From the NCBI GenBank assembly GCA_022732315.1, contig JAIJUV010000171.1, forward strand, positions 1-5,723: a stretch of DNA of 5,723 bases, in the 5' to 3' direction. Made by a program: the position numbers and the translations under genes. The notes under the pieces are model-generated. The model was not told the DNA's origin and did no database searches. It saw only the letters and a list, made by a program, of their open reading frames with translations. Below are positions 1-5,723 of this stretch, piece after piece; the stretch's first letter is position 1; every line of letters begins with the position of its first letter. This DNA comes from Prevotella sp. (GTDB lineage: Bacteria > Bacteroidota > Bacteroidia > Bacteroidales > Bacteroidaceae).

Positions 1-1347
1 ATTATTCCAGAAGAATGCCGTTGGCGCAACTGGGCACATGATGATGGAAGTGGCAATGCCTTGACTGGTGACGAACTGCTTTCGTTTGTCAACAACACCT
101 TGTTTGTTGAACTCAAAAACATAGAGGTTACACCTGATACCCCAATTCGTCAGGCAATAGTAAAGACAACTTTTGAGGATGCCAACCAATATATGAAAGA
201 TGGCGTTCAGCTCCGCCAGGTGCTTAATGTGATAGACGGATTGAATCTTGGTGACTATGAAGAGAGTCATGCTTTCGGTGAGATATATGAGACTATCCTT
301 AAAGAAATGCAGTCGGCAGGTTCCTCAGGTGAGTTCTACACCCCAAGAGCCTTGACAGAATTTATGGCAGAGATAGTCAATCCGCAGATTGGTGAGAAAA
401 TGGCAGACTTCGCTTGTGGTACAGGAGGTTTCATCACAAGTTGGTTGGGTGAATTGGACAAGAAGGTAAAGACTGCTGAAGACCGCAAAGAGTACAATCA
501 GTCTGTATTTGGCATAGAAAAGAAACAATTCCCGTATATGCTATGTGTGACAAACCTGTTGCTGCATGGTATCGACACGCCATTGGTATATCACGACAAC
601 TCGCTTACCAAAGATGTTCTCAACTATACAGACGGAGACAAGTTTGATGTTGTTTTGATGAATCCACCATACGGAGGTAATGAAAAGGCCGACGTGAAAT
701 CTCACTTTCCTTCTGATATGCGCAGTAGCGAGACTGCCGACCTCTTCATGGTGCTTATCATGTATCGCTTGAAGAAAAATGGCCGTGCTGCTGTCATTGT
801 TCCTGATGGTTTCCTTTTTGGAGCAGATAACACAAAGATTGCCATTAAGACAAAGTTGCTCAGGGATTTCAACTTGCACACCATTATCCGTTTGCCAGGC
901 AGCATCTTTGCGCCCTACACTTCCATTGCCACGAACATTCTGTTCTTCGACAATACCTGTGCAGAGGATGCTCCAGAAGGCTTCTCGACAAAGGAAACAT
1001 GGTTCTACCGTTTGGATATGCCAGAGGGGTACAAGCATTTCTCCAAGACAAAGTCCATGAAGTTGGAGCATTGCGACCCAATCCGTGAGTGGTGGAACGA
1101 CCGTAAGGAGATTATTATTGCTGATGGTGACGAGAAATCCCGTTGCTATTCTGTACAAGAGTTGATTGATTCCGATTGCAACTTCGACTTGTGCAAGTTC
1201 CCGAAAGAGGATGAGGAGATTTTGCCTCCTGCCGAACTGCTTGCCGACTATTTCAAGAAGCGCAAGGCTCTTGATCATGAGATAGACAAGACATTGGCAG
1301 AGATACAGCGTATATTGGGGATTGAGGTGAATGTGGACGAATTGTAA
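1..1347 (+). CDS. hsdM: Type I restriction-modification methyltransferase subunit HsdM (5'-truncated by window edge)
   Basis: This is the DNA adenine-N6 methyltransferase subunit of a Type I R-M complex, which uses S-adenosylmethionine and acts with HsdS at the bipartite target. The reading frame is open to base 1 (it begins IPEECRWRNWAHDD), so the TTG at 61 is an internal leucine and the start is upstream; 448 residues are visible. Counting from base 1, the sequence shows GEFYTPR (residues 110-116), typical of HsdM; the SAM-binding motif I DFACGTGGF (136-144); and the catalytic motif IV NPPY (221-224). These are followed by the conserved ADLFMVLIMYRLKKNGRAAV stretch. The last ~50 residues are rich in charged and hydrophobic residues and look like the helical tail that contacts HsdS. 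It ends 117 bp before the DUF1016 gene on the same strand, so it is probably the promoter-proximal part of one operon. The family call is secure; target sequence and activity cannot be read from the sequence. Confidence 0.96.
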   Translation: MIPEECRWRNWAHDDGSGNALTGDELLSFVNNTLFVELKNIEVTPDTPIRQAIVKTTFEDANQYMKDGVQLRQVLNVIDGLNLGDYEESHAFGEIYETILKEMQSAGSSGEFYTPRALTEFMAEIVNPQIGEKMADFACGTGGFITSWLGELDKKVKTAEDRKEYNQSVFGIEKKQFPYMLCVTNLLLHGIDTPLVYHDNSLTKDVLNYTDGDKFDVVLMNPPYGGNEKADVKSHFPSDMRSSETADLFMVLIMYRLKKNGRAAVIVPDGFLFGADNTKIAIKTKLLRDFNLHTIIRLPGSIFAPYTSIATNILFFDNTCAEDAPEGFSTKETWFYRLDMPEGYKHFSKTKSMKLEHCDPIREWWNDRKEIIIADGDEKSRCYSVQELIDSDCNFDLCKFPKEDEEILPPAELLADYFKKRKALDHEIDKTLAEIQRILGIEVNVDEL

Positions 1348-1349
1348 TA

Positions 1350-1368
1350 TGTGGGACGGTGTCCCGCA
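1350..1368. repeat. Stem-loop 1 of a small palindromic repeat family
   Basis: An 8-bp stem (1350-1357 with 1361-1368, one G-T wobble) encloses the 3-nt loop GGT; the core is GGGAC-GGT-GTCCC. It starts 3 bp after the hsdM stop codon and is followed by AAATTC (1368-1373), a flank shared with the palindromes at 1797-1815 and 2567-2591. No T-run follows, so it is not a classical intrinsic terminator. Confidence 0.75.
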
Positions 1369-1387
1369 AATTCAGATTGATATAAAA

Positions 1388-1408
1388 AGGTGAGACATTG
1401 TCTCACTT
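1388..1408. repeat. Stem-loop 2 of the palindromic repeat family
   Basis: A perfect 7-bp stem GTGAGAC / GTCTCAC (1390-1396 with 1400-1406) encloses the 3-nt loop ATT. It extends to 9 bp if a G-T wobble is allowed. The stem sequence is the same as that at 2571-2587 beyond the DUF1016 gene; only the loop differs. Confidence 0.75.
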
Positions 1409-1421
1409 ATTTGAAATAGGA

Positions 1422-1445
1422 ATTTTGGGGACGTGTCCCCAAAAT
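1422..1445. repeat. Stem-loop 3 of the palindromic repeat family
   Basis: A perfect 11-bp inverted repeat (1422-1432 with 1435-1445) has core GGGGAC-GT-GTCCCC and A/T outer arms. In RNA the loop would open to CGTG. It ends 19 bp before the DUF1016 start codon, so a folded mRNA could mask or frame that gene's ribosome-loading region. That regulatory role is inference. Confidence 0.78.
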
Positions 1446-1464
1446 CTGATAATAATACAGAATT

Positions 1465-2562
1465 ATGGCAAACGAAATAACAAAGACTTCGGATAATATT
1501 GAAGACCTACTTGATAAGGTGTCTGGTCTTATAGAACAGGCAAGGACTTACGTGAAGACTTCGGTCAATACTGCTGAGGTCTATACCAAGTATTATATAG
1601 GCAAGTATATAGTGGAGTATGAACAGGAAGGGAATGTTCGTGCGCAATATGGAAAGCAAGTCTTGCAAGAATTGTCAAAGAGTTTGACTGCTCGTTTTGG
1701 GGCAGGTTGGTCATATCCAAATCTCCGCAATATTAGGCAATTCTATATTGTATATGCAAAAAGGTCAACCACTGGTTTCCCTTTTGAAAACAAAAATGCT
1801 AACCAGTGGTTAGCAAATTCGAAAGATAGTGATAATCTGATGTTTAAGCTTTCTTGGAGTCATTATTTGATTCTGATGCGAGTGGAAAATCCAGACGCTC
1901 GTTCTTTCTATGAAATAGAGTGCGTCCAACAGCAATGGTCAAAAAGACAGCTGAGTCGTCAAGTGGGCTGTTGCCTCTATGAGCGATTGGCTTTGAGCCG
2001 TGAAAAAGATGAGGTGATGCGTTTGGCAAAGGAAGGTCAAACTGTAGAGAAACCTTCTGATGTTATCAAAAGTCCTTTGACCTTGGAATTCTTGGGCTTG
2101 AAGCCAGATGCCGCATACTCTGAGTCGAAGTTGGAGAATGCCATTATCAGCAAGATGCAACAGTTCCTACTCGAATTAGGCAAAGGCTTCCTCTTCGAGG
2201 CACGCCAGAAGCGTTTCACCTTTGATGAAGACAATTATTATGTAGATTTGGTCTTCTATAATAGATTGTTGCAATGCTATGTCCTTATTGATTTGAAAAC
2301 AGATAAGCTTTCTCATCAAGACCTTGGACAGATGCAGATGTATGTCAACTATTATGACCGCTTTGTGAAGCAAGACTTCGAGAAACCAACCATCGGCATT
2401 TTGCTTTGTGAGAGTAAGAACGATGCACTTGTAGAGTTAACTTTGCCGAAAGACTCTCATGTATATGCTTCTGCGTATCAATTATATTTGCCAGACAAGG
2501 CTTTGCTGCAAGCCAAGGTAAAGGAATGGATTGCAGAGTTTGAGGAAAACAATATAGGTTAA
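1465..2562 (+). CDS. DUF1016 / YhcG-family PD-(D/E)xK nuclease-domain protein
   Basis: This 365-residue protein has the two-part architecture of the DUF1016 family. An N-terminal helical domain (about 10-180) includes the family-type segments VYTKYYIGKYIVEYEQ, GWSYPNLRNIRQFYIVY and LSWSHYLILMRVENPDARSFY. A C-terminal PD-(D/E)xK-like nuclease domain (about 200-350) follows. Candidate catalytic residues are E224, D261 (in YYVDLVFYNR), D276 and K278 (in LIDLKT), followed by HQDLGQMQMYVNYYD. The active-site set looks complete, so the domain may be catalytic. Family members often sit inside Type I R-M loci between hsdM and hsdS, as here, but their role is not settled; an accessory nuclease or a role in R-M or recombination is possible. 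The start ATG has an A/T-rich leader (ATAATACAGAATT) and no Shine-Dalgarno sequence. Five stem-loops flank it and one more palindrome lies inside it, encoding a probably variable linker (residues ~100-120). The family call is strong; function is unknown. Confidence 0.9.
   Translation: MANEITKTSDNIEDLLDKVSGLIEQARTYVKTSVNTAEVYTKYYIGKYIVEYEQEGNVRAQYGKQVLQELSKSLTARFGAGWSYPNLRNIRQFYIVYAKRSTTGFPFENKNANQWLANSKDSDNLMFKLSWSHYLILMRVENPDARSFYEIECVQQQWSKRQLSRQVGCCLYERLALSREKDEVMRLAKEGQTVEKPSDVIKSPLTLEFLGLKPDAAYSESKLENAIISKMQQFLLELGKGFLFEARQKRFTFDEDNYYVDLVFYNRLLQCYVLIDLKTDKLSHQDLGQMQMYVNYYDRFVKQDFEKPTIGILLCESKNDALVELTLPKDSHVYASAYQLYLPDKALLQAKVKEWIAEFEENNIG
1767..1815. repeat. Palindrome inside the DUF1016 coding sequence
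   Basis: GCTAACC-AGT-GGTTAGC forms a perfect 7-bp stem (1798-1804 with 1808-1814; 8 bp with the next T-A pair) and a 3-nt loop, the same geometry as the intergenic stem-loops. It is followed by AAATTC (1815-1820), the flank also seen after the stem-loops at 1350 and 2567. An upstream copy AACCACTGGTT (1767-1777) is an exact 11-bp inverted match to 1801-1811, so two alternative folds are possible. The element is read through in frame, contributing protein residues around 101-118 (TTGFPF...NANQWLAN). Confidence 0.7.
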
Positions 2563-2566
2563 AAGG

Positions 2567-2591
2567 ATTTGTGAGACAGCGTCTCACAAAT
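2567..2591. repeat. Stem-loop 4 of the palindromic repeat family
   Basis: A perfect 11-bp inverted repeat (2567-2577 with 2581-2591) has core GTGAGAC-AGC-GTCTCAC and is followed by AAATTC. It begins 5 bp after the DUF1016 stop codon. The GTG at 2571, which would open a longer HsdS reading frame, lies inside this stem and is therefore a poor start candidate. Confidence 0.75.
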
Positions 2592-2594
2592 TCG

Positions 2595-2611
2595 TCACCA
2601 ACTTGTGGTGA
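2595..2611. repeat. Stem-loop 5, just upstream of hsdS
   Basis: A 6-bp stem TCACCA / TGGTGA (2595-2600 with 2606-2611) encloses the 5-nt loop ACTTG. It is immediately adjacent to stem-loop 4 and 22 bp upstream of the hsdS ATG. It differs from the others in loop length, so membership of the same family is tentative. Confidence 0.5.
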
Positions 2612-2633
2612 ATTAAACAGTATAAAGAGAACA

Positions 2634-4208
2634 ATGAACGGAAAGCAATTAAAGAATAGCATATTACAATGGGCGATACAAGGCAAACTTGTACCGCAAG
2701 ACCCTAATGACGAACCTGCAAGCGTTTTGCTTGATAAGATTCGTCAAGAGAAAGAACGCTTGATTAAGGAGAAAAAAATCAAGCGTGACAAGAACGCATC
2801 TATTATCTACCGTGGTGAGGACAATTCCTATTATGAGAAGATACTTGCTACGGGAGAGGTGAAATGCATTGATGAGGAAGTGCCGTTTGAGATACCGCAG
2901 GGGTGGGAATGGGAACGCATTGGTAACCTTTTTGAGACAACAAGCGGTTCCACACCTCTAAGCAGAAATCCCGACTACTACCAAAATGGCAGCATTAATT
3001 GGGTTCGCACGACAGACTTAAATAATGGAGTTTTATGCAAGACGGAGATACAAATTACGGAAAAAGCTTGTTCAGACTACAACCTTACCATTCTCCCACA
3101 AAACTCGGTATGTATTGCGATGTATGGCGGTGCAGGAACGATTGGAAAACATAGCATTCTACAGTTCGATACAACCATCAATCAGTCAGTTTGTGCCATT
3201 AAGCCAAATGGATATTGCAATATGGATTATCTTCATATTTTTATCGAATATCAAAGACCTTATTGGATGGATTTTGCTGCTGGATCGAGAAAAGACCCGA
3301 ATATAAATCAACTCATTATAAAGCATTGTCTATTACCTATCCCACCACAAAAGGAACAGACACGCATAGTAGAGAAGTTGAGCTTACTCCATCCATATAT
3401 AACCCAATATGGAGAATGTCAAATAAAACTTGACTATATAAACAAAGAGATATTGGATAAATTTAAAAAGTCCATTTTACAGGAAGCAATTCAAGGAAAA
3501 CTTGTTCCGCAACTTACAGAGGAGGGTACTGCTCAAGATTTGTTGGAGCAGATTAAGATAGAGAAGCAGAAACTCGTTAAGGAAGGTAAACTAAAGAAGT
3601 CTGCCCTCAATGACTCTGTTATTTTCCGTGATGACGATAACAGGTATTGCGAGAAGATAGGAAAGTCGGTGCAGTGCATTGATGAAGAGATTCCGTTTGA
3701 GATACCAGAAAGCTGGGTGTGGTGTAAATTTCAAGACATAGCAAATAGCGAACTTGGAAAAGCGATGAATAAGGCTTCTGACAAAGGAAGCGAAGTTCCA
3801 TATTTATGCTCAATAAATGTATATTGGGATAAAGTAGATTTATCTAATGTAAAAGTTGCTCCCTTTTCCATTGCAGAGAAAGAAAAGTATTTATTACAAA
3901 AAGGAGATTTGCTTATTTGCGAAGGTGGCGAGGTTGGAAGATGTGCAATATGGAGTAATGATAAAACTATGTATTATCAAAATGCATTGCATAGAGTAAG
4001 ATTTTATGGGAACATCAGTTCCAAGTTTATACAAAATGTTATAAGGAGCTATAAAACTATGGGCATCATAGATAAGAATAGTAAAGGAATGACTATTAAG
4101 CATTTTACAAAAACGGCATTAAATAGCTTGTATATTCCCTTGCCACCCTTTCAAGAGCAACAACGCATTGTTGCTCAAATAGAAAAACTATTTGAGCAAC
4201 TGCATTAA
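2634..4208 (+). CDS. hsdS: Type I restriction-modification specificity subunit HsdS (expressed orientation)
   Basis: This subunit recognises the bipartite DNA target and scaffolds HsdM (and HsdR). At 524 residues it is slightly longer than a typical two-TRD HsdS. An N-terminal conserved helical segment (1-64, SILQWAIQGKLVPQ at 9-22) leads into TRD1 (~88-246, beginning IPQGWEW and ending LPIPPQKEQTRIV). A central conserved coiled-coil-like spacer (~247-345, again SILQEAIQGKLVPQ, 280-293) follows, then TRD2 (~357-512, ending PLPPFQEQQRIV) and a short helical tail. The repeat of spacer and TRD entry (CIDEE.PFEIP at 78-88 and 348-358) reflects the two-fold pseudo-symmetry of HsdS. I chose the ATG at 2634, preceded by the A-rich AAAGAGAACA; a GTG at 2571 would start inside a stem-loop and add a non-conserved leader. 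It lies 71 bp after the DUF1016 gene, probably co-transcribed with hsdM. Everything from codon 64 onward lies in a predicted invertible segment. Confidence 0.95.
   Translation: MNGKQLKNSILQWAIQGKLVPQDPNDEPASVLLDKIRQEKERLIKEKKIKRDKNASIIYRGEDNSYYEKILATGEVKCIDEEVPFEIPQGWEWERIGNLFETTSGSTPLSRNPDYYQNGSINWVRTTDLNNGVLCKTEIQITEKACSDYNLTILPQNSVCIAMYGGAGTIGKHSILQFDTTINQSVCAIKPNGYCNMDYLHIFIEYQRPYWMDFAAGSRKDPNINQLIIKHCLLPIPPQKEQTRIVEKLSLLHPYITQYGECQIKLDYINKEILDKFKKSILQEAIQGKLVPQLTEEGTAQDLLEQIKIEKQKLVKEGKLKKSALNDSVIFRDDDNRYCEKIGKSVQCIDEEIPFEIPESWVWCKFQDIANSELGKAMNKASDKGSEVPYLCSINVYWDKVDLSNVKVAPFSIAEKEKYLLQKGDLLICEGGEVGRCAIWSNDKTMYYQNALHRVRFYGNISSKFIQNVIRSYKTMGIIDKNSKGMTIKHFTKTALNSLYIPLPPFQEQQRIVAQIEKLFEQLH
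2825..2878 (+). repeat. Left arm of perfect 54-bp inverted repeat (hsdS inversion site)
   Basis: This segment is identical, reverse-complemented, to 5509-5562 over 54 bp with no mismatch. It begins TTCCTATTATGAGAAGATAC and encodes SYYEKILATGEVKCIDE, starting at the third base of codon 64 of hsdS. Identity stops sharply on both sides. It lies at the junction between the conserved N-terminus and TRD1, which is where specificity-switching crossovers in phase-variable hsdS loci are expected. Confidence 0.93.
2865..2896 (+). repeat. Direct repeat at TRD1 entry (partner 3675-3706)
   Basis: This 32-bp stretch matches 3675-3706 at 28 positions by hand count, both starting TGCATTGATGA and ending CCGTTTGAGATACC. 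It encodes CIDEE(V/I)PFEIP before each TRD of the expressed hsdS. It partly overlaps the 54-bp inversion arm and offers short homology for TRD1/TRD2 position exchange. Confidence 0.7.
3462..3658 (+). repeat. Central hsdS spacer, diverged inverted homology (partner 4729-4925)
   Basis: The coding sequence of the central conserved spacer aligns without gaps to the reverse complement of 4729-4925: about 155 of 197 bases match by hand count (~79%). Most differences fall at third codon positions. The longest exact runs are only 14-15 bp (TGACGATAACAGGTA, 3632-3646 against 4741-4755). It could serve as a second crossover region for TRD2 alone, but lacks the perfect identity of the 54-bp arms. Confidence 0.75.
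3675..3706 (+). repeat. Direct repeat at TRD2 entry (partner 2865-2896)
   Basis: This is the second copy of the CIDEE..PFEIP-encoding repeat, placed immediately before TRD2 of the expressed hsdS and differing from 2865-2896 at four positions. The silent cassette has a diverged sequence here (VDITEQIPFDLP) instead. Confidence 0.7.
4158..4173 (+). repeat. 16-bp inverted repeat in hsdS 3' ends (partner 4223-4238)
   Basis: CAACAACGCATTGTTG is exactly reverse-complemented at 4223-4238. Both copies encode the conserved QQRIV at the end of TRD2 in the two convergent hsdS genes. It is explained by gene homology, but brings two inverted copies within 50 bp of one another at the centre of the invertible segment. 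Confidence 0.8.
4170..4200. repeat. Perfect 13-bp stem-loop at the overlap of the convergent hsdS genes
   Basis: GTTGCTCAAATAG (4170-4182) pairs perfectly with CTATTTGAGCAAC (4188-4200) around the loop AAAAA. On the minus strand the first of these sequences, read at 4200-4188, ends in the TAG stop codon of the silent cassette. On the plus strand the hairpin is still coding (VAQIEKLFEQ). No run of T follows on either strand, so intrinsic termination is doubtful; slowing of convergent transcription is possible. Confidence 0.7.
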
Positions 4209-5567
4209 TTGCTCTATCTTTTCAACAATGCGTTGTTGTTCCTCTATTGGAGGCAATGGGTATAGATAATTTTCTATATGACAGTTGTTTATGGAGGGTG
4301 AGTTGTCGCCCTTCATAAACGAATTTAATCCATCAACCACATAATTTGATAGCATCAAATAATACAGGAACATAGGATAATACCCTAAACTTGGGGTAAT
4401 GACATAGAATCCTGTACTTGCAATGGCATCTTTATATATATCATCAACCAAAGCTATATTTTTCAAGTAGGGACGAACCATTGAAAACAACAAATCGTTT
4501 TTATGAAGTTTTCTCGTTGCTCGACTTGGAGCATTTTCAATTCTTACCTTTTTAGGTTTGTCTATAATGTTTAGCCTATTATTGACGGCATCTACATCTA
4601 TATAAACGAAATCAGATGATGGCTTTGTTGATTCCATAGGCATAAATACAGACTTGCCTCTTGCCCAACTCCAAGAATCGGGCAAATCAAATGGTATTTG
4701 CTCTGTTATATCCACGTACTTTTTCCCAATCTTCTCATAGTACCTGTTATCGTCACCACGGAAAACAACAGAATCGTTGAGGGCAGACTTTTTGAGTATG
4801 CCTTCTTTGACGAGTTTCTGTTTCTCTGCCTTTATCTGTTCAAGCAGTTCTTGTGCAGTTCCTTCTTCGGCTATTTGTGGTACAAGCTTGCCTTGTATAG
4901 CTTCTTGCAGAATGGATTTCTTTAAGTCTGTTACTATATTTGCATTAAGTAGGTCTAATTTATCCTGCGAAGAACTATATCTTTCTACATATGACAAAAT
5001 CAAATTTAACCTGTTCTTAATTCTTCCTTGTTCTTCTAATGGCGGAACAACCATTAACGTTTTTGATACCGCCGACAATACCCAATTTTTATTTCCTACT
5101 CCTCTTGTATTTTCTTTAGCCTGTTCTTGAACCAATGGTGATTGAATCATAAAGACTAAGAACTCTCTATTTATGTCACATTGTATGAGTTTTATTAACG
5201 CTACACTTACAAAAAGACTAAACTCTCTATCTGTTGTAACCATGGCAGGTATTCCTGTAGTTCCAACTTTTGACAACAACAAATCTCCTTTTTGGGGATG
5301 GCATCTATCAGAAAGCTTTTGGTGTTCTTCTTTGGATATATATTTTGTGTTTGAAAAATCAATAACTCCAGAACTCATATCCTTTACAGAGATAAAAGGA
5401 ATACCTGAAAGTGTATATTTAGGTGTAGAATGAGTTCCGTCTGTTAAAGATAGATACAAACTTGAAAATCTACACCATTCCCACCCCTTAGGCACTTCAA
5501 ATGGAATCTCCTCATCAATGCATTTCACCTCTCCCGTAGCAAGTATCTTCTCATAATAGGAACTCAT
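4188..5567 (-). CDS. hsdS: Second HsdS body, N-terminally truncated (probable silent specificity cassette)
   Basis: Read on the minus strand from the ATG at 5567, this 459-residue frame is an HsdS lacking the ~64-residue N-terminal helical segment of the expressed copy. It begins MSSYYEKILATGEV, directly at the 54-bp inverted repeat. TRD1 spans ~28-183 (LTDGTHSTPKYTLSGIPFIS...GDLLLSKVGTTGIPAMV...VVPPLEEQGRI). The conserved spacer is at ~184-290 (KKSILQEAIQGKLVPQ, 216-231), and TRD2 is at ~293-447 (FVYIDVDAVNN...NDLLFSMVRPYL...PLPPIEEQQRIV). Both TRDs differ from those of the expressed gene, so it stores an alternative specificity. It is intact with no frameshift, as expected if it is periodically expressed by inversion. 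Its 3' end overlaps the expressed hsdS by 21 bp, convergently. A possible promoter box lies at 5572-5579, so low expression as a truncated protein cannot be excluded. Confidence 0.9.
   Translation of the reverse strand: MSSYYEKILATGEVKCIDEEIPFEVPKGWEWCRFSSLYLSLTDGTHSTPKYTLSGIPFISVKDMSSGVIDFSNTKYISKEEHQKLSDRCHPQKGDLLLSKVGTTGIPAMVTTDREFSLFVSVALIKLIQCDINREFLVFMIQSPLVQEQAKENTRGVGNKNWVLSAVSKTLMVVPPLEEQGRIKNRLNLILSYVERYSSSQDKLDLLNANIVTDLKKSILQEAIQGKLVPQIAEEGTAQELLEQIKAEKQKLVKEGILKKSALNDSVVFRGDDNRYYEKIGKKYVDITEQIPFDLPDSWSWARGKSVFMPMESTKPSSDFVYIDVDAVNNRLNIIDKPKKVRIENAPSRATRKLHKNDLLFSMVRPYLKNIALVDDIYKDAIASTGFYVITPSLGYYPMFLYYLMLSNYVVDGLNSFMKGDNSPSINNCHIENYLYPLPPIEEQQRIVEKIEQLMQLLK
4223..4238 (-). repeat. 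16-bp inverted repeat in hsdS 3' ends (partner 4158-4173)
   Basis: This is the minus-strand copy of CAACAACGCATTGTTG, encoding QQRIV near the C-terminus of the silent cassette. A crossover here would only exchange the last ~12 residues of each protein. Confidence 0.8.
4729..4925 (-). repeat. Central hsdS spacer of the silent cassette, diverged inverted homology (partner 3462-3658)
   Basis: This is the minus-strand counterpart of the central spacer of the expressed hsdS. It is ~79% identical by hand count, mostly with synonymous differences, and encodes LKKSILQEAIQGKLVPQ through DDNRYYEK. Confidence 0.75.
5509..5562 (-). repeat. Right arm of perfect 54-bp inverted repeat (hsdS inversion site)
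   Basis: This is the reverse complement of 2825-2878 over all 54 bp. It occupies codons 2-20 of the silent cassette, in the same codon phase as in the expressed gene. Beyond it (5563 onward) there is no trace of the conserved HsdS N-terminus. Confidence 0.93.
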
Positions 5568-5571
5568 AGAA

Positions 5572-5579
5572 CAAATTTA
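5572..5579 (-). promoter_or_regulatory. Possible Bacteroidales -7 box (TAAATTTG) facing the silent cassette
   Basis: The minus strand reads TAAATTTG, an exact match to the Bacteroidales -7 consensus TAnnTTTG. The upstream -33 element is weak: the best candidate, GTTG, sits 17 nt away instead of about 20. With usual spacing transcription would start at about 5568, one base before the cassette ATG at 5567, giving an almost leaderless message. An 8-bp match in a 61-bp AT-rich gap may be chance. Confidence 0.25.
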
Positions 5580-5628
5580 TGTCTATTTTATTAGGACAAC
5601 TTTATGTTTCACTAATAAAAGAACAGAA

Positions 5629-5723
5629 ATGGAATTAGACAAATTTGAAGAGTTCCTAAGCCAAGGCAATATGGCTAAGAACACGATTTCGGCATATCTG
5701 TATGCCGTGAAGGAGTTTGGCTC
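5629..5723 (+). CDS. Tyrosine recombinase / phage-type integrase, N-terminal fragment (runs off window)
   Basis: Thirty-one complete codons are visible, MELDKFEEFLSQGNMAKNTISAYLYAVKEFG. The pattern F..FL....N.A.NTI.AYLYAVKEF is typical of the SAM-like, core-DNA-binding N-terminal domain of tyrosine recombinases (XerC/D-type integrases), in which the N-T...Y....F helix contacts DNA. The catalytic domain (R..H..Y) lies beyond the window, so activity cannot be judged. The ATG at 5629 is preceded by A-rich sequence (AATAAAAGAACAGAA) with no strong Shine-Dalgarno. It is divergent from the silent hsdS cassette across a 61-bp gap (5568-5628) and just outside the invertible segment, so its orientation would not change on inversion. 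It is the prime candidate for the hsdS invertase; a remnant of an unrelated integrated element is less likely given the position. Confidence 0.85.
   Translation, partial: MELDKFEEFLSQGNMAKNTISAYLYAVKEFG

What the first reader, a model, noticed from the sequence alone, without database searches (positions are those of the whole stretch)
2825..5562. Frame-preserving hsdS inversion switch with perfect 54-bp arms
Two convergent hsdS bodies are bounded by a 54-bp inverted repeat without a single mismatch (2825-2878, 5509-5562), placed at the N-terminus/TRD1 junction and in the same codon phase in both genes. Only the left copy has the HsdS N-terminus. Inversion would replace both TRDs at once, producing a 521-residue HsdS instead of the present 524-residue one, and would change the methylation pattern genome-wide. 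Invertible hsdS loci with a neighbouring recombinase are known in Bacteroidales and other bacteria; this particular TRD set and site may be new.
Basis: partly seen in the sequence, partly recalled or inferred. Interest (0 to 1): 0.85.

Follow-up and report, generated by a model that had tools for sequence, protein, structure and literature searches.

The report
Invertible switch of DNA-methylation target
A gut bacterium can flip a 2.7-kb DNA segment and so exchange the part of its restriction-modification enzyme that chooses which DNA sequence is marked; public sequences hold both flipped forms, and it is a well-supported new example of a known kind of bacterial switch.

Summary
Confirmed. An exact 54-bp inverted repeat (2825-2878 / 5509-5562) bounds two convergent hsdS bodies in the same codon phase; only the left one has the N-terminus. 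The products of inversion exist in nature: the predicted 521-aa protein is identical to a database protein named Segatella copri HsdS, and the reciprocal 462-aa ORF (one substitution) is listed with the same longest contig length, 3,872,478. Ten downstream haplotypes occur both with and without the N-terminus, so switching recurs. A tyrosine recombinase gene begins at 5629. Of 47 related loci with at least 6 kb downstream of hsdM, 23 have both inverted hsdS and recombinase, 23 neither, 1 the recombinase alone, 0 inverted hsdS alone. The kind is known (pneumococcal cod/PsrA, Bacteroides fragilis, Prevotella intermedia). Methylation, expression and recombinase action were not tested.

The parts
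1..1347 (+). hsdM, 3' part (448 codons in the window), type I methyltransferase
   Evidence: Pfam N6_Mtase 2.6e-61; PADLOC MTase_I 2.7e-143
1465..2562 (+). accessory gene between hsdM and hsdS: YhcG/DUF1016 PDDEXK nuclease, 365 aa (not part of the switch itself)
   Evidence: Pfam YhcG_C 3.2e-52, DUF1016_N 3.2e-36; PADLOC PDC-S02
2634..4208 (+). hsdS with N-terminal block, 524 aa, allele A (TRD1A + TRD2A)
   Evidence: Pfam Methylase_S 4.9e-36; fold matches solved HsdS chains
2634..2824 (+). N-terminal block of HsdS, present only in the left copy, outside the invertible segment
   Evidence: conserved in relatives
2825..2878 (+). left outer arm of the 54-bp inverted repeat; first 24 nt are the likeliest exchange site
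5509..5562 (-). right outer arm of the 54-bp inverted repeat
3632..3646 (+). left inner exchange site (15-bp exact inverted repeat, next to CAGGTATTGCGAG)
   Evidence: allele change of 9 of 11 TRD1B+TRD2A proteins falls here
4741..4755 (-). right inner exchange site (next to CAGGTACTATGAG)
3462..3664 (+). central conserved region of allele A (inverted copy at 4723-4925, 78% identical)
4188..5567 (-). convergent hsdS without N-terminal block, 459 aa, allele B (TRD1B + TRD2B), presumed storage copy
   Evidence: Pfam Methylase_S 2.9e-18
5629..5723 (+). start of tyrosine recombinase gene (31 codons in the window)
   Evidence: identical over 31 residues in L001-L004, L006, L007; full-length relatives Pfam Phage_integrase 5.8e-27

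Best explanation
[quoted passage not shown] The left hsdS supplies the N-terminal block; a convergent copy without that block stores a second pair of target-recognition domains (TRDs). A tyrosine recombinase encoded next door most likely exchanges strands at the outer site (TTCCTATTATGAGAAG...), inverts about 2.7 kb and so replaces TRD1A+TRD2A by TRD1B+TRD2B in frame (524 to 521 aa). Exchange at an inner site before TRD2 swaps TRD2 alone, so that four HsdS proteins can be made, each expected to direct m6A to a different bipartite target. Shown by sequence: the anatomy, both orientations in databases, recurrence of switching, all four TRD pairings, co-occurrence with the recombinase. Inferred: that this recombinase is the catalyst, the exact crossover base, that each form methylates, the species, and any effect on gene expression.
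For: Exact in-phase arms. Predicted 521-aa product found identical (P0001) and reciprocal 462-aa ORF with one substitution (P0142), same longest contig length. Six A and four B haplotypes in both states among 31 A and 33 B proteins that passed the length and 95% identity filter. All four TRD pairings among 283 proteins returned by three searches; predicted TRD1A+TRD2B hybrid found with 2 differences in 521; 9 of 11 TRD1B+TRD2A proteins change allele inside the 15-bp inner repeat. Recombinase and inverted hsdS together in 23, neither in 23, recombinase alone 1, inverted hsdS alone 0 of 47 loci. Arms of one locus resemble each other more than shuffled pairs do, p 0.0002, 16 loci. Outer homology in relatives ends at the same place.
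Against: No reads or DNA of the opposite orientation could be examined; pairing of the two ORFs on one contig rests on equal contig lengths. Markers at codons 70-89 occur on both A and B backgrounds, so exchange in the arm is not confined to one base. With other partner alleles the TRD1/TRD2 breakpoints spread over codons 276-358. L073 and, among short contigs, L072 have the recombinase but no inverted hsdS found.
Confidence: 0.92

Rival explanations
1. Inversion happens mainly by RecA-type homologous recombination between the duplicated hsdS sequences; the neighbouring recombinase is incidental or secondary.
For: Codon 70-89 markers are mixed between A and B backgrounds; breakpoints with other alleles are spread over the central conserved region; in pneumococcus part of the hsdS inversions do not need PsrA (PMC7096588, passages).
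Against: Inverted hsdS was never found without the recombinase in 47 loci; in relatives such as L025 and L030 the outer repeat is exact over only 24 nt yet begins at the same point; 9 of 11 TRD1B+TRD2A changes lie in one 15-bp stretch, although these 11 may share ancestry.
Confidence: 0.13
2. The copy without the N-terminal block is not silent: it is translated from its own ATG and its truncated HsdS takes part in the enzyme.
For: An ATG two bases outside the arm in the window and in L001-L004, L007, L025; small HsdS fragments were suggested to contribute to methylation in Prevotella intermedia (PMC5608340, section 3.2.1 part 1).
Against: No ATG at that place in L015, L016, L019, L024, L030, L034; the product lacks helices 3-15 and 29-45 of the model; promoter-like sites in 1300-5723 are no more than chance (9 found, 13.0 expected; that scan does not cover Bacteroidales promoters).
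Confidence: 0.1
3. Two fixed, divergent hsdS genes in opposite orientation, without switching.
For: The window alone shows one orientation only.
Against: The opposite products exist and ten haplotypes occur in both states.
Confidence: 0.02

Closest known systems
Streptococcus pneumoniae cod / Spn556II (SpnIII) locus with PsrA (PMC4948785, PMC7096588; passages)
   Same: One functional hsdS next to hsdM, inverted storage hsdS copies, locus-encoded tyrosine recombinase, a 15-bp exchange site and IR1-like sequences within the longer repeats; several HsdS forms by inversion.
   Different: Two hsdS bodies in the window instead of three genes; outer repeat 54 bp and inner repeat 15 bp; a nuclease gene sits between hsdM and hsdS. 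The pneumococcal site and PsrA were not compared by sequence here.
Prevotella intermedia ATCC 25611 type I locus with rearranging hsdS (PMC5608340, section 3.2.1 part 1; pv-RMS also noted in PMC5690328)
   Same: Same family of bacteria; an inversion of 2371 bp in the hsdS region and several type I m6A motifs from one system.
   Different: There the hsdS genes are mostly fragments and lie upstream of hsdM as drawn; the passages searched do not mention a recombinase. Here both bodies are intact and the junctions are defined.
Inverting type I loci of the REBASE survey, with Bacteroides fragilis and the Streptococcus suis four-way switch (PMC7394358; passages)
   Same: Repeats before the 5' TRD and between the TRDs, recombinase gene in several loci, four possible HsdS.
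   Different: In the passages seen Prevotella is named only in a reference title and Segatella not at all; its supplementary tables could not be opened. The B. fragilis study Ben-Assa 2020 was seen only as a citation.

Membership tests
Inverting (phase-variable) type I R-M hsdS locus | hsdS beside hsdM, with hsdR in the locus | tested here: inconclusive
   hsdM and hsdS in the window; the window does not reach hsdR; hsdR lies upstream of hsdM in relative L003
Inverting (phase-variable) type I R-M hsdS locus | second hsdS body in opposite orientation sharing inverted repeats with the first | tested here: met
   exact 54-bp and 15-bp inverted repeats
Inverting (phase-variable) type I R-M hsdS locus | the two bodies carry different TRDs | tested here: met
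   TRD1A against TRD1B proteins and TRD2A against TRD2B proteins at most 25% identical in the typing of P0001-P0042 and P0121-P0154
Inverting (phase-variable) type I R-M hsdS locus | both arrangements occur, with reading frame kept | tested here: met
   (proteins; not read data)
Inverting (phase-variable) type I R-M hsdS locus | the arrangements give different methylation motifs | not testable with these tools
   needs methylome data
PsrA-type recombinase-driven hsdS switch | tyrosine recombinase gene in the locus | tested here: met
   31 residues in the window; complete relatives with PF00589; co-occurrence in 47 loci
PsrA-type recombinase-driven hsdS switch | inversion depends on the recombinase | not testable with these tools
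   needs a knock-out or plasmid assay
PsrA-type recombinase-driven hsdS switch | sequence kinship of the recombinase with PsrA | not tested
   PsrA was not fetched or compared
Phasevarion (phase-variable regulon) | switching changes the expression of a set of genes | not testable with these tools
   needs transcriptomes of clones in each state

The most novel reading that the evidence does not exclude
One recombinase reads two address classes of a shared core: TTCC+TATTATGAG before TRD1 and CARG+TATTATGAG before TRD2. TRDs are thus drawn as cassettes from full-length and from TRD2-only stores, and the shared, frame-matched core also lets a TRD pass between first and second position over evolution. 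A near-palindromic form, TTCTCATTATGAGAAG, stands at such sites in Lachnospiraceae relatives, so the logic would span phyla.
Probability: 0.3. Interest if true: 0.5.

Novelty: new member of a known kind. Interest (0 to 1): 0.33.

Why it matters
Segatella copri is an abundant human gut species. A four-state switch of methylation target would make cells of one strain differ in methylome, in resistance to incoming DNA and phage, and perhaps in gene expression; it would bear on why transformation and phenotypes differ between cultures. The two allele sets and both exchange sites give exact junctions that can be counted in existing metagenomes.

Tried and rejected
Two fixed hsdS genes: rejected. 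One single crossover base in the outer arm: weakened, because markers at codons 70, 74, 83, 87 and 89 occur on both A and B backgrounds. All TRD1/TRD2 reassortment at the inner site: not upheld for other partner alleles, where the best single breakpoints of 189 comparisons (which include the A/B hybrids) spread over codons 276-358. A viral-contig scan for 39 bases of the arm found nothing. Rfam at gathering thresholds found nothing in the window. A genus-wide DNA search (398 genomes, 55 with any match) listed no genome with the window's allele set at near identity; the longest match was 75% over 1083 bases (G347; the match list was cut), so no inverted copy could be read as DNA. Predicted structure and fold search only confirmed an HsdS fold. 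Literature searches; two papers sought by identifier are not held.

Full report
What is there. The window carries the 3' part of hsdM (1-1347), a YhcG/DUF1016 nuclease gene (1465-2562), an hsdS with N-terminal block (2634-4208, 524 aa), a convergent hsdS without it (5567-4188, 459 aa) and the first 31 codons of a tyrosine recombinase from 5629. The recombinase is named through relatives: these 31 residues are identical in L001-L004, L006 and L007, and the complete 268-residue protein of L003 matches Pfam Phage_integrase at 5.8e-27. In L003 an hsdR lies upstream of hsdM; the window does not reach that far. A predicted structure of the 524-aa protein (mean pLDDT 82.3, pTM 0.51, so the placement of domains is uncertain) matches solved HsdS chains 1yf2, 2y7c, 3okg and 5ybb best.

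Check of the observation. The arms 2825-2878 and 5509-5562 are exact over 54 bp and end sharply on the outer side; the central conserved copies are 78% identical over 203 nt. Reversing 2825-5562 in a script gives open frames of 521 and 462 residues. The description holds in every element.

Both orientations exist. A search of about 5.8 billion clustered proteins with the predicted 521-residue product returned P0001, named Segatella copri restriction endonuclease subunit S, in 13 contigs, identical at every residue. The reciprocal 462-residue ORF is P0142, with one substitution; its longest contig has the same length, 3,872,478, as that of P0001. P0014, identical to the window's own 459-residue ORF, stands for 45 contigs. 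Equal longest-contig lengths pair 524-aa with 459-aa proteins four times (44151, 210093, 83210, 56700) and 521-aa with 462-aa proteins twice (3872478, 37740). Two further equal lengths do not fit this simple pairing: 54898 (P0007, 521 aa, and P0124, 524 aa, both with N-terminus) and 86349 (P0040, 435 aa, allele B, and P0146, 462 aa, allele A, both without it). Contigs could not be fetched, so pairing rests on length alone.

Switching recurs. Residues from the arm to the C-terminus were compared in the proteins of the right length with at least 95% identity to one allele: 31 of allele A (19 with the N-terminus, 12 without) and 33 of allele B (10 and 23). Six A and four B haplotypes occur in both states. 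A single old inversion would not give this.

A second exchange point. Typing of the 283 proteins returned by three searches (each list cut at 120) gave, with N-terminus, TRD1A+TRD2A 21, TRD1B+TRD2B 11, TRD1B+TRD2A 11 and TRD1A+TRD2B 7; without it A+A 13, B+B 30 and A+B 5; 185 others carry at least one other TRD. In 9 of 11 TRD1B+TRD2A proteins the allele markers change between residues 333 and 339, the 15-bp exact inverted repeat 3632-3646 / 4741-4755; P0079 changes earlier and P0089 is mosaic. These 11 may share ancestry. P0241 is the predicted TRD1A+TRD2B hybrid with 2 differences in 521. Of the 12 TRD1A+TRD2B proteins 3 change in the same interval, 6 one marker upstream of it, and 3 are mosaic. 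The locus is best read as a four-way switch of the kind drawn for Streptococcus suis in PMC7394358 (passages).

Site anatomy in relatives. One scan of species genomes with HsdM kept 80 of 510 confirmed loci. In 17 loci with both outer sites, window included, left and right sites agree at 26% in the 24 nt outside, 91% in nt 1-24 and 81% in nt 25-54. The loci were picked by a motif that covers nt 1-15, so the 91% is partly by construction; the drop outside is not. L011 dropped out because its right site missed the length filter, and L003 was not in the list. Arms of one locus are more alike than shuffled pairs (0.844 against 0.707, p 0.0002, 16 loci, L006 left out for masked bases; in 8 close loci 94 of 40,320 permutations reach the observed value). 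Inner sites read CARG+TATTATGAG in many relatives, and TRD2-only cassettes in L001, L002, L011, L016, L019, L022, L024, L025, L032, L034 and L081 begin at such a site, with the letters TAA or TAG directly before it and an in-frame stop 1-4 codons upstream. In Lachnospiraceae-type relatives (L061, L063, L074, L075, L078) the near-palindrome TTCTCATTATGAGAA or one base off it is found at the TRD2 position and, in some, at further cassettes. Like TRDs stand behind the N-terminus in one species and in the storage copy in another (L006 and L004 93.6%; L007 and L087 92.2%), and some differ in position (L037 first, L016 second, 80%); this shows exchange among lineages, not inversion as such.

Link to the recombinase. 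Of 80 loci, 47 have at least 6 kb downstream of hsdM: inverted hsdS and recombinase together 23, neither 23, recombinase alone 1 (L073), inverted hsdS alone 0. Of the 33 shorter ones, 2 have both, 1 the recombinase alone (L072) and 30 neither within the contig. Co-occurrence does not prove catalysis.

Results against a simple model. Markers at codons 70, 74, 83, 87 and 89 appear on both A and B backgrounds, so exchange in the arm is not confined to one base; gene conversion, homologous recombination or exchange with other alleles must act as well. Over all partner alleles breakpoints spread over codons 276-358.

Comparison with what is known. The pneumococcal cod locus has the same plan (PMC7096588 and PMC4948785, passages). 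Prevotella intermedia ATCC 25611 shows an hsdS inversion and several motifs from one type I system (PMC5608340, section 3.2.1 part 1). B. fragilis is named among inverting loci (PMC7394358, passages), and hsdS inversions were reported in 13 species in PMC5903667 (passages). A search of the held library for hsdS with inversion and Prevotella copri gave no paper; wider searches gave none on this locus among the rows listed (1 of 1, 15 of 60, 10 of 263). Most subscription papers are not held; Ben-Assa 2020 and Huang 2020 were seen only as citations. I file it as a new member of a known kind.

Noticed in passing
window 1353-1365, 1388-1408, 1422-1445, 2565-2593 (intergenic) and 1797-1815 (inside the yhcG gene): Short palindromes, several with stem GAC...GTC and flanks like AATTTG...CAAATT, lie around and inside the nuclease gene; similar ones occur in this interval of relatives (L001, L002, L003, L007, L010, L011, L012). 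TGRGACRNYGTCYCA was found in 4 of 8 relatives' genomes, 6 sites, all at this locus; the reversed control pattern hit once each in 3 of 8. Function unknown.
   Followed up: partly
window 1348-2633; same interval in L001-L025: The slot between hsdM and hsdS is variable: a YhcG relative at about 73% in L015 and L021, at 37-40% in L001, L002, L003, L005, L009, L011, L012, L024, and none found by tblastn in L004, L006, L007, L008.
   Followed up: partly
L001-L010 (HsdM): HsdM is 94-97% identical over several named Prevotellaceae genera and one record titled Bacteroidales bacterium, which suggests horizontal spread of the locus; no tree was made.
   Followed up: no
L003 11314-12374: The plus-strand hsdS seems to lack most of TRD1: similarity to the N-terminal block ends at residue 70 and resumes at the end of TRD1; perhaps an exchange product or a decayed state.
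   Followed up: no
L007 15643 onward: The recombinase of L007 is 238 residues against 268 in its close relatives; an internal stretch of 30 residues is missing.
   Followed up: no
P0007 and P0124 (database proteins): Two full-length HsdS, one of each allele, share the same longest contig length of 54,898: two complete copies in one locus, or an assembly artefact.
   Followed up: no
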